Part shown: positions 484 through 2,166 of the stretch, piece after piece | Position numbering within the stretch: position 1 is the stretch's first letter | Layout of the letters: each line of letters opens with the position of its first letter | NCBI GenBank assembly: GCA_020216575.1 | Contig: JAIUYC010000057.1 | Coordinates: 1-10,327 of the forward strand | Direction of reading: 5' to 3' | DNA length: 10,327 nucleotides | DNA from: Coleofasciculus sp. S288 | GTDB taxonomy: Bacteria > Cyanobacteriota > Cyanobacteriia > Cyanobacteriales > Coleofasciculaceae | Program-made: the position numbers and the translations under genes | Notes under the pieces: model-generated | The model's input: only the letters and a program-made list of their open reading frames with translations | What the model was told of the DNA's origin: nothing | The model's database searches: none

Positions 484-2166
484 ATGAAGCTAGGAATTGA
501 TTTTGGAACTTGCTACTCCAGTGCTGCATTAATGGTCAATGGTGAGCTACAACGTGTCAAAGAGTCTCAAGGTCAGGGGTATTCTTTCCCATCAAGTATA
601 TTTTTGACCAAACAAGGAGAAGTTCTTGTTGGTCGAGCGGCAGAAAACGCACGGAATAGAGATCCTCAACGCTACCAGCGAGAGTTTAAGCGGAATCTCG
701 GAAGTTCTGATCCCTATGTGTTGGGAGATTGCTTCATGCGTCCAGAAGAACTAGTTGTCGAGGTGTTGCGTGAGCTTAGAGATAAAGCTAATGACATAGC
801 TCGTAGTCGAGGTGAAAACTTATTAAAAAATGCTGTCATTACCATTCCTGCAACTTACCAGAATCACAAGCAGAAATTAATGAAAGACGCTGGTATTAAA
901 GCAGGATTTGATTGGGTAGAGTTACTGGAAGAGCCAGTAGCAGCAGCAATCTACTATTACCGTAATGCAAAACTAGACGAGGGTGACATCATCTTGGTGT
1001 ATGACTTGGGTGGAGGCACGTTTGATGCAACGCTACTCCAAACAAAAGCATTAGGATATGAACTGCTAGGAATGCCACAGGGCTTGCCAGACTGTGGTGG
1101 AACTGACTTTGATCGCTTGATTTACCAAAACTGCTTACATAACTGTAGCTCCGATCTTGGAGAACTTTTGAAGAGTAAAGAAAAAAAAGGGTTAATAGCC
1201 AGGGCTACAATAGCTGACCGTTTGCGTGATATAAAGCATCAACTGAGCGAGGAGCAAGAGGCAGAAATTACCATCCCGCTAAGCTTAGGAGAAGTAGAGC
1301 AATATTCGCTCACTCGATCAACCTTTAATGGAATGATTGCTCCCTTGATAGAGGAAACCTTAAACTGTTGCGATAGCTTGCTTCAAAGTACTAACTTAGA
1401 TTGGCGGCGAATCAGTCAGGTTTTATTAGTGGGAGGTAGCTGCCGTATTCCCTATGTAAAGGAGGCTATTAAGCAAAAGTTAGGGAGAGAGCCTTTACCT
1501 ATAGATGAACCAGAATTAGCAGTTTGTTTGGGAGCAGCACTTTATGGTGCTGAACAACAAGAACCCAAAATACAAAATTCTAATGTTCAAACTAATTCTG
1601 CCCTTGTGAAGGCTACTGATCCTAAAAATCAAAATGCCTTAACAAGGAACGCCATTCCTACAATCTTAGCGGATAACATAGCTAAAAATCAAAATTTATT
1701 CACGTTAGAAACTTTACTATCAGAGTGTAAATGGAAAGATTCCGACCAGGAAACACTAAAAGCTTTACTTATGTTGGTAAGAAGAAAAAATCAAGCATTC
1801 TTAGAACAGAACGACATAAAAAATCTTTTTGATGAATTTCAAGAAGAAATAAAGGAAATTGACTCTCTTTGGCTTAAGTACAGCCAGAAACGTTTTGGTT
1901 TTAGCATTCAAAGCCAAATCTACCAAAGGTCTTCTGATTTTTCAGAGTTCTGCTATCGGGTTGGATGGAGAGATAAAAAAGGTTTCTTACAAGCAATGAC
2001 CAATTGGAAGACTTATGAGGAGTTGACATTTACTTTAGATGCTCCTAAAGGTCATCTTCCTTTTATAGTACATACAGATACTCCTGTTCAGCTTAATTTA
2101 GCCGGTCGCATGGGAATAGTAGATCATCACTTTCTATCTGTTTGCCTTTCTCAAATTTTTAGGTAA
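484..2166 (+). CDS. Hsp70-family ATPase fused to a C-terminal GUN4 domain
   Basis: 560 aa, ATG start, only a weak ribosome site. Residues 1 to about 355 form an Hsp70/actin-type nucleotide-binding domain: phosphate-1 loop GIDFGT (4-9), LEEPVAAA (148-155), phosphate-2 loop YDLGGGTFD (173-181), adenosine motif LLVGGSCRIP (314-323) and the closing PELAVCLGAA (343-352). Residues 356-403 are a polar, N/Q/K-rich linker. Residues 404-560 match GUN4: KWKDSDQET (416-424), IDSLWLKYSQKRFGFSIQ (456-473), RVGWR (492-496) and LTFTLDAPKGHLP (514-526). There is no beta-sandwich substrate-binding domain, so this is not a standard DnaK. GUN4 binds protoporphyrin IX and Mg-protoporphyrin and stimulates Mg-chelatase; cyanobacteria also fuse it to other signalling domains. 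Inference: a cytosolic ATPase whose state or targeting responds to tetrapyrroles, with the GrpE-like neighbour as exchange factor. Both domain calls are strong; the role is open. Confidence 0.93.
   Translation: MKLGIDFGTCYSSAALMVNGELQRVKESQGQGYSFPSSIFLTKQGEVLVGRAAENARNRDPQRYQREFKRNLGSSDPYVLGDCFMRPEELVVEVLRELRDKANDIARSRGENLLKNAVITIPATYQNHKQKLMKDAGIKAGFDWVELLEEPVAAAIYYYRNAKLDEGDIILVYDLGGGTFDATLLQTKALGYELLGMPQGLPDCGGTDFDRLIYQNCLHNCSSDLGELLKSKEKKGLIARATIADRLRDIKHQLSEEQEAEITIPLSLGEVEQYSLTRSTFNGMIAPLIEETLNCCDSLLQSTNLDWRRISQVLLVGGSCRIPYVKEAIKQKLGREPLPIDEPELAVCLGAALYGAEQQEPKIQNSNVQTNSALVKATDPKNQNALTRNAIPTILADNIAKNQNLFTLETLLSECKWKDSDQETLKALLMLVRRKNQAFLEQNDIKNLFDEFQEEIKEIDSLWLKYSQKRFGFSIQSQIYQRSSDFSEFCYRVGWRDKKGFLQAMTNWKTYEELTFTLDAPKGHLPFIVHTDTPVQLNLAGRMGIVDHHFLSVCLSQIFR

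What the first reader, a model, noticed from the sequence alone, without database searches (positions are those of the whole stretch)
484..2166. Hsp70 ATPase domain fused to GUN4 in place of the substrate-binding domain
The ATPase half has all Hsp70 nucleotide motifs, but the C-terminal half is a GUN4 domain with its KW-x-x-(A/S)D-x-ET, LWxKYS-x-x-RFGFS, RVGWR and AP-GHLP signatures. GUN4 binds chlorophyll and haem precursors. A chaperone ATPase carrying a porphyrin sensor, next to a GrpE-like exchange factor, suggests tetrapyrrole-controlled chaperone or signalling activity. I do not know of a described system of this kind.
Basis: partly seen in the sequence, partly recalled or inferred. Interest (0 to 1): 0.82.

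Follow-up and report, generated by a model that had tools for sequence, protein, structure and literature searches.

The report
Hsp70 ATPase with swappable GUN4 tail
A cyanobacterial protein joins the ATP-burning half of an Hsp70 chaperone to a GUN4 domain that has lost its pigment-binding signature; it looks like one variant of a family whose tails are exchanged, encoded next to a GrpE of a kind that elsewhere sits beside dynamin-like, membrane-remodelling genes.

Summary
The fusion is real: residues 1-356 are an Hsp70 ATPase domain (E 3.7e-54), 402-528 a GUN4 domain (E 1.5e-26); there is no substrate-binding domain; a divergent, contig-cut GrpE lies 62 bp upstream. Tetrapyrrole sensing is not supported: the binding motif LxNxLR after GHLP is in 16 of 16 stand-alone GUN4 orthologs examined and in none of 17 fused domains; the window reads N211V, R214D, F196L. 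The context is more telling. This GrpE is found in 7 of 376 genomes; in four of the other six it follows a tandem dynamin-like pair in one locus with an Hsp70 of the same subfamily, a C39-peptidase-like gene and a ~180-aa gene. The subfamily's tail is exchanged (GUN4, TPR, WD40, kinase, FGE, beta-helix, none): of 42 protein pairs with >=90% identical ATPase domains, 16 have unrelated or only partly matching tails. Best reading: a constant-ATPase, variable-tail Hsp70 tied to GrpE and, in half of the genomes that carry it, to a dynamin pair; probably conflict-like. Against: no such dynamin was found in the window's draft genome (67% complete), and the other Hsp70-GUN4 fusion of its family stands without GrpE or dynamin.

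The parts
2..421 (+). C-terminal part of a divergent GrpE-like nucleotide exchange factor, cut by the contig start
   Evidence: PF01025 E 9.1e-9; 43-57% identical to the GrpE of four Hsp70/dynamin loci (G446, G554, G600, G483), 51% to G438, 33% to G460; alignment
484..2166 (+). Hsp70-GUN4 fusion gene, 560 aa
   Evidence: 97% identical homolog P0002
484..1551 (+). Hsp70 nucleotide-binding domain, residues 1-356, nucleotide motifs intact, no VLLLD-type interdomain linker after it
1552..1686 (+). Linker, residues 357-401, low-confidence; near the point where tails differ between relatives
   Evidence: pLDDT < 50 at 358-403; identity falls to background after residue 320-360 in pairs of relatives
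1687..2067 (+). GUN4 domain, residues 402-528
   Evidence: PF05419 E 1.5e-26; PDB GUN4 sequences
2062..2079 (+). FIVHTD (residues 527-532), where stand-alone GUN4 orthologs carry the bilin/porphyrin motif LSNQLR

Best explanation
The protein belongs to a mainly cyanobacterial Hsp70 ATPase-domain subfamily whose C-terminal half is an exchangeable module. Here the module is a GUN4 paralog without the canonical tetrapyrrole signature, so it most likely acts as a protein- or altered-ligand recognition module, as the TPR, WD40, FGE and beta-helix tails of its relatives presumably do. Its partner is a GrpE of a rare subfamily that would reset the nucleotide state. In about half of the genomes with this Hsp70 subfamily the gene lies with a C39-like peptidase, a ~180-aa protein and two tandem dynamin-like GTPases, often followed by this GrpE. 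Proposed mechanism: the tail recognises a target, the ATP/ADP state of the Hsp70 domain (reset by GrpE) sets a threshold, and the output goes through the dynamin pair, i.e. membrane remodelling, plausibly in a stress or anti-invader response. Shown: domains, motif loss, module exchange, gene association in relatives. Inferred: ATPase activity, recognition by the tail, the switch, the membrane output, the conflict role, and that the window's own locus carries dynamins.
For: Same ATPase domain, different tails: 16 of 42 pairs with >=90% NBD identity have unrelated (13) or only partly matching (3) tails, e.g. P0007 (GUN4; 34 contigs) against P0021 (TPR; 8 contigs): 92-100% per 40-residue window to residue 320, 85% in 321-360, 12-33% after. 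Converse: P0009/P0010, tails 100%, NBDs 86%. On a 123-row NBD tree the GUN4 label needs 11 changes, at least 9 forced by starred branches. The GrpE: 7 of 376 genomes. 6 of these 7 (5 of 6 without the window's own) have the Hsp70 subfamily, found in 12 of 388 at E<=1e-90 (Fisher p 1.7e-9, or 4.5e-8 without own, n taken as 376/375). 5 of 7 have dynamin B, found in 8 of 376 (p 1.9e-8). Gene order Hsp70 / C39-like / ~180 aa / dynamin A / dynamin B / GrpE in G554, G483, G600 and, with the Hsp70 inverted, G446; dynamin A / dynamin B / GrpE in G460. A DO-GTPase by Pfam follows the Hsp70 in G619. Dynamin A matches PADLOC LeoA at 9.6e-29. LxNxLR: 0 of 17 fused domains, 16 of 16 orthologs.
Against: Of the 12 genomes with the close Hsp70 subfamily, 6 lack dynamin B and 6 lack the GrpE; among those with neither, G111, G402, G413 and G422 are 90-99% complete, so the Hsp70 often stands without the set. 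No dynamin A or B of this type was found in the window's genome (best E 1e-4); its 67% completeness makes this inconclusive. The window's order (GrpE then Hsp70) differs from the relatives. The other Hsp70-GUN4 fusion found in 20 genomes of the family (G402, L132) has neither GrpE nor dynamin on its 7.8-kb contig and a degenerate ATPase site. GrpE is missing after dynamin B in G619 and G640, and from pANA01. Nothing here tests defence or any biochemistry. The Fisher tests ignore relatedness, and the 1e-90 cut was chosen after seeing the list.
Confidence: 0.45

Rival explanations
1. One reading: the GUN4 tail is a tetrapyrrole sensor that controls Hsp70 ATPase/chaperone activity with GrpE, coupling pigment status to protein folding or signalling.
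For: GUN4 profile and PDB sequence matches retained; GUN4 fusions to enzymes have been proposed as tetrapyrrole sensors (PMC7159879, passages).
Against: Signature residues lost: N211V, R214D, F196L by register. PMC10156173 reports that no member of its paralog clade keeps N211 and that one substitution in the motif abolishes bilin binding in Chlamydomonas GUN4 (passages). The tail is one of many interchangeable modules.
Confidence: 0.12
2. A membrane-maintenance or protein-sorting helper: Hsp70, GrpE and dynamins act in thylakoid or plasma-membrane remodelling, with no role in conflict.
For: A 'chaperone group' of cyanobacterial dynamin-like proteins with a DnaK-domain gene downstream was described and read this way (PMC5827413, section 7).
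Against: Patchy distribution (GrpE 7 of 376, dynamin B 8 of 376), a plasmid copy, a degraded copy in G632 and tail exchange fit a diversifying system better than housekeeping.
Confidence: 0.27
3. Chance or decaying fusion with no specific function; GUN4 paralogs have multiplied and land on many genes.
For: 2-13 GUN4 matches per genome in 19 of 19 genomes of the family; the G402 fusion has a degenerate ATPase site.
Against: Window ATPase motifs intact; a 97% identical homolog is kept in another strain; several separate Hsp70-GUN4 fusions on the NBD tree.
Confidence: 0.16

Closest known systems
GTPase-centric conflict systems with Hsp70/GrpE (Kaur et al. 2020, eLife, PMC7159879; passages read)
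   Same: GTPase genes with an Hsp70, GrpE and sometimes an extra Hsp70 lacking the peptide-binding domain; constant core with variable modules; GUN4 and FGS/FGE are listed among effectors of related cyanobacterial systems. A DO-GTPase-type gene (Pfam over cut-off) follows the Hsp70 in G619; genes of the same length and start on pANA01.
   Different: That Hsp70/GrpE theme was reported mainly in actinobacteria and firmicutes; 'dynamin' does not occur in its main text; no Hsp70-GUN4 fusion or Hsp70 tail exchange appears in the passages seen.
'Chaperone group' and Tandem A/B cyanobacterial dynamin-like proteins (PMC5827413; section 7 and passages read)
   Same: Dynamin-like genes beside a DnaK-domain gene; tandem dynamin genes.
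   Different: 'GrpE' does not occur in its main text; the section read does not mention a C39 peptidase, the ~180-aa gene or exchangeable C-termini. Whether its chaperone group is this lineage was not tested.
LeoABC tandem bacterial dynamins (PMC4159319, passages; PADLOC models)
   Same: Tandem dynamin-like pair; dynamin A of G483 hits PADLOC LeoA (9.6e-29) and LeoBC (9.3e-18).
   Different: Far below NCBIfam's LeoA cut-off (46.6 against 325 bits); 'Hsp70' and 'chaperone' do not occur in that paper's main text.
GUN4, Mg-chelatase cofactor (ortholog in own genome: L001)
   Same: GUN4 domain by profile, core motifs.
   Different: Lacks LxNxLR, R214, F196; fused; resembles the paralog type in this.
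Kinase-GUN4 and other GUN4 fusions (PMC1262709 and PMC7159879 passages; P0122-P0126)
   Same: GUN4 as C-terminal tail; of the 6 proteins found with the GUN4 part as query, P0002 aside, the best is a kinase fusion (40% identity).
   Different: N-terminal part is a kinase, peptidase or NTPase, not Hsp70.

Membership tests
Hsp70 chaperone (DnaK-type) | Nucleotide-binding domain with phosphate, Lys, Glu and adenosine motifs | tested here: met
Hsp70 chaperone (DnaK-type) | Interdomain linker (VLLLD type) and substrate-binding domain | tested here: not met
   Alignment with DnaK ends in unrelated sequence after residue 356; GUN4 occupies 402-528
Hsp70 chaperone (DnaK-type) | GrpE-type exchange factor encoded nearby | tested here: met
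   window 2-421; recurrence with the Hsp70 subfamily
GUN4 (Mg-chelatase cofactor, tetrapyrrole binder) | GUN4 domain by profile | tested here: met
GUN4 (Mg-chelatase cofactor, tetrapyrrole binder) | LxNxLR bilin motif incl. N211 and R214, plus F196 | tested here: not met
   residue roles from PMC10156173 and PMC8967248 passages
GUN4 (Mg-chelatase cofactor, tetrapyrrole binder) | Porphyrin/bilin binding and Mg-chelatase stimulation | not testable with these tools
   needs protein
GTPase-centric (DO-GTPase) conflict system | DO-GTPase genes beside the Hsp70 | tested here: inconclusive
   No Pfam DO-GTPase among the window's scanned ORFs, but the window is cut at the GrpE; in G619 one gene is over the Pfam cut-off and a second below it; DO-GTPases were not searched for elsewhere in the genome
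GTPase-centric (DO-GTPase) conflict system | GAP1 protein | not tested
   no GAP1 search made
Hsp70/C39/dynamin-pair/GrpE gene set described here | Tandem dynamin-like pair in the same genome | tested here: inconclusive
   None in G000 better than E 1e-4, but the draft is 67% complete and the contig starts inside GrpE
Hsp70/C39/dynamin-pair/GrpE gene set described here | Set-type GrpE and same Hsp70 ATPase subfamily | tested here: met
Constant-domain/variable-tail (polymorphic) proteins | Near-identical constant domain with unrelated tails | tested here: met
   for relatives only; the window's own close relative P0002 has the same tail

The most novel reading that the evidence does not exclude
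Polymorphic Hsp70s: cyanobacteria use an Hsp70 ATPase domain as a constant switch and trade recognition tails (GUN4, TPR, WD40, FGE, beta-helix) by recombination near the linker, with a dedicated GrpE resetting the switch and a tandem dynamin pair as membrane-acting output, i.e. an immune-like system in which a repurposed chlorophyll-pathway domain is one interchangeable sensor.
Probability: 0.3. Interest if true: 0.82.

Novelty: new variant of a known kind. Interest (0 to 1): 0.6.

Why it matters
If true, an Hsp70 ATPase cycle with its own GrpE controls something other than peptide binding, with the substrate domain replaced by exchangeable recognition modules, and a chlorophyll-pathway domain has been reused without its pigment site. 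It would give a testable bacterial case of chaperone ATPase plus dynamin as a diversifying, possibly anti-phage machine, and would warn against reading 'GUN4' in fusion proteins as 'tetrapyrrole sensor'.

Tried and rejected
Tetrapyrrole sensing as the default: rejected on motif loss, kept as a rival. Lone fusion curiosity: rejected by the module-exchange data. Phage origin: of 25 phage records that match, none covers >=80% of the fusion; the 10 listed match the Hsp70 part only; a viral-contig scan for near-exact stretches of the protein found no relative (one of 8 scans used). Plasmid-borne: 140 plasmid records match, 40 listed; the best is Anabaena sp. 90 pANA01 (53% identity over the Hsp70 part), the others listed are at 28-34%; the ~180-aa gene is on that plasmid only (1 record); the GrpE fragment on none.

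The full-length search at E<=1e-70 found the family in 2 of 386 genomes, own included. Foldseek and VIA-align lists are filled by the ATPase domain, so the fold of the GUN4 part was not tested by structure; GUN4 not being listed there excludes nothing. In the phylum and order searches with the Hsp70 and with dynamin B only 3 candidates per genome were scored, so those counts are lower bounds. The first GUN4 alignment script failed, on its alignment, had some loci on the wrong strand; only one search is used for counts. In 'ortholog' means the 16 best-scoring matches (213 bits or more; the next is 155), from 16 of 19 genomes; since the profile runs to position 141 the motif itself may add to that score. 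L006 (cut by the contig) and L008 (irregular; no LxNxLR) were not counted.

Counting rows: one search took the 121 rows P0001-P0121, i.e. the best 120 of 5310 hits plus the query, and kept 118 (P0003 and two short ones dropped); 81 had tails >=100 aa. The pairs are not independent: they reduce to about three clear exchanges (P0004/P0010; P0006, P0007, P0009 and P0011 against P0021/P0024; P0012-P0015 against P0031) and three partial pairs. The tree held 112 of these 121 rows less P0103 (too short), the two halves of P0003 and 10 locus proteins; eight rows (P0054, P0085, P0101, P0106, P0107, P0112, P0120, P0121) were not given a label and left out. Tail labels were set by hand from Pfam columns and lengths. 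The tree is 'quick' LG+G4, with long branches warned of.

Full report

THE GUN4 DOMAIN IS NOT THE CANONICAL TETRAPYRROLE BINDER. [quoted passage not shown] In one search, 16 of 16 stand-alone orthologs of this cyanobacterial family (L001, L163-L177; from 16 of the 19 genomes) carry LSNQLR directly after GHLP. It is absent from 17 of 17 fused domains examined (the window, the second family fusion L132, 10 GUN4 domains of 9 further Hsp70-GUN4 proteins, and P0122-P0126), from 13 further family matches (L178-L190) and from 4 own paralogs (L002-L005). By ungapped register the window reads F196L, N211V, R214D; position 192 is unclear (W in the HMMER alignment to 1y6i; T by register). It does not prove absence of any ligand: Arabidopsis R211A and R211E lowered Mg-protoporphyrin affinity 7.5- and 12.2-fold rather than to zero.

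THE HSP70 DOMAIN IS A CONSTANT PART WITH EXCHANGED TAILS. The best 120 of 5310 hits of the full protein share the ATPase domain but carry GUN4, TPR, WD40, WG, FGE, beta-helix, GTPase, other, or no tail; Pfam on ten locus proteins adds kinase+WD40, FGE+TPR, beta-helix, TPR (two), GUN4 (G402) and four without a clear tail domain. On a 123-row ATPase-domain tree the tail label needs 38 changes (49 with the unassigned class), and GUN4 alone 11, at least 9 forced by starred branches (quick method, hand-set labels, long branches flagged). More direct: of 42 pairs with >=90% ATPase-domain identity, 16 have tails with no match (13) or a partial match (3). P0007 (GUN4, Microcystis, 34 contigs) and P0021 (TPR, Microcystis panniformis, 8 contigs) are 92-100% identical per 40-residue window up to residue 320, 85% in 321-360, and 12-33% after. 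The converse also occurs: P0009 and P0010 have identical GUN4 tails on ATPase domains 86% identical. These pairs reduce to a few independent exchanges, and metagenome chimeras cannot be ruled out for single-contig entries, but the Microcystis case rests on many contigs.

THE GrpE POINTS TO A GENE SET. The window's GrpE fragment has matches at E<=1e-6 in 7 of 376 genomes of the order, own included. In G554, G483 and G600 the gene order is Hsp70 (TPR, TPR or beta-helix tail), C39-peptidase-like gene, ~180-aa gene, dynamin-like A, dynamin-like B, GrpE; in G446 the Hsp70 (kinase-WD40 tail) is inverted beside the rest (dynamin A 658-706 aa, B 525-540 aa in these four); G460 shows dynamin A, dynamin B, GrpE on a short contig; G438 has GrpE and the Hsp70 on separate cut contigs. 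The C39 label rests on PF13529 over its cut-off in two of the four such proteins scanned (L136, L146; not G483's, scanned as L128, nor L192; no NCBIfam hit for three) and on homology among them; the dynamins on PF00350. Dynamin B is in 8 of 376 genomes; dynamin A is beside it in all 8; an Hsp70 of this type is in the same locus in 6 of 8 (in G640 only its contig-cut end; G460 and G632 contigs are cut); GrpE follows dynamin B in 5 of 8. Co-occurrence by genome: GrpE with Hsp70 6 of 7, p 1.7e-9 (5 of 6, p 4.5e-8, without own); GrpE with dynamin B 5 of 7, p 1.9e-8; dynamin B with Hsp70 6 of 8, p 6.7e-9 (n=376 used although one search drew 388, relatedness ignored, Hsp70 cut E<=1e-90 chosen afterwards). 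In G619 the Hsp70 is followed by two GTPase-like genes (one a DO-GTPase over the Pfam cut-off, one below it) and then C39-like, ~180-aa, dynamin A and B; plasmid pANA01 of Anabaena sp. 90 has an identical Hsp70 domain and the same order, so these two are one case rather than two. PADLOC finds LeoA-like (9.6e-29) and LeoBC-like models in the dynamins of G483. PADLOC's PD-T4-6 model matches the window's GUN4 part with its C-terminal end (2.2e-30); I take this as a sign that the model was built with GUN4-bearing proteins, not as evidence of defence.

AGAINST. Of the 12 genomes with the close Hsp70 subfamily (E<=1e-90), only 6 have dynamin B and 6 the GrpE; G111, G402, G413 and G422, 90-99% complete, have neither. 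No dynamin of this type was found in the window's own draft genome. The window's order is GrpE then Hsp70, unlike the relatives. The only other Hsp70-GUN4 fusion found in 20 genomes of the family (G402) has no GrpE or dynamin on its 7.8-kb contig and a broken phosphate motif (YDLGANTFD). GrpE is missing from some dynamin loci and from plasmids. So the association is strong for the GrpE and for the dynamin pair, looser for the Hsp70, and probable, not shown, for the window.

HOW IT MOST LIKELY WORKS. Inference: tail recognises, Hsp70 domain switches with ATP/ADP, the GrpE resets it, dynamins act on membranes, the C39-like peptidase may process a component. The variable tails and patchy spread suggest conflict with invaders, as argued for related GTPase-centred systems (PMC7159879, passages).

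KNOWN OR NEW. In print: GUN4 fused to kinases, caspases, trypsin and TIR (PMC7159879 passages; kinase-GUN4 in PMC1262709 passages; GUN4-like domains in variable proteins, PMC7517822 passages); Hsp70 plus GrpE, with an extra Hsp70 lacking the peptide-binding domain, in DO-GTPase systems of actinobacteria and firmicutes; DnaK-domain genes downstream of cyanobacterial dynamin-like genes (PMC5827413 section 7). My nine searches (open-licence PMC only, listings, plus passages of eight papers and one section) showed no description of an Hsp70-GUN4 fusion, of the Hsp70 tail exchange, or of a GrpE in these dynamin loci. The supplements of these papers were not read, and Pfam-style domain listings of such fusions exist. 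Hence: new variant of a known kind.

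Noticed in passing
window 4377-4940 (-): Stand-alone MutS domain I (PF01624, 2e-34) in a 187-aa ORF without the rest of MutS.
   Followed up: no
window 2205-10327 (-): Opposite-strand run of helicase (UvrD-like), MutS-I, a 384-aa ORF without a Pfam hit, RimK-like ATP-grasp and RecD-like helicase genes; gene content reminiscent of a plasmid or island (impression only).
   Followed up: no
L132 (G402:C519) 3605-5320: Second Hsp70-GUN4 fusion in the same family, with a degenerate ATPase site (YDLGANTFD, region of the catalytic Lys shortened).
   Followed up: partly
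19 genomes of the family: GUN4 domains have multiplied: 2-13 matches per genome, many in long ORFs; many paralogs end in an FSRVExC-like motif and lack LxNxLR.
   Followed up: partly
P0012-P0015, P0065: Hsp70 + PF00550 (phosphopantetheine attachment/ACP) + GUN4 architecture in metagenomic proteins.
   Followed up: no
L134 (G576) 5746-10896: A different locus: GrpE, two Hsp70-like genes (525 and 508 aa) and a gene whose start looks DnaJ-like (by eye), in one direction.
   Followed up: no
L193 (G632:C151): Dynamin pair split into several ORFs, apparently a decaying copy of the gene set.
   Followed up: partly
L145 13969-14604: The GrpE of G483 starts with a hydrophobic stretch that looks like a membrane anchor (by eye).
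   Followed up: no
L147 (G446) 4120-5310: ORF that looks like an IS transposase (by eye) lies between the inverted Hsp70 gene and the rest of the gene set.
   Followed up: no
L130 (G422) and L192 (G640): Two further small genes (about 290-300 aa and 150 aa) with similar starts lie beside the Hsp70 in both loci (by eye); G422 has no dynamin B match.
   Followed up: no
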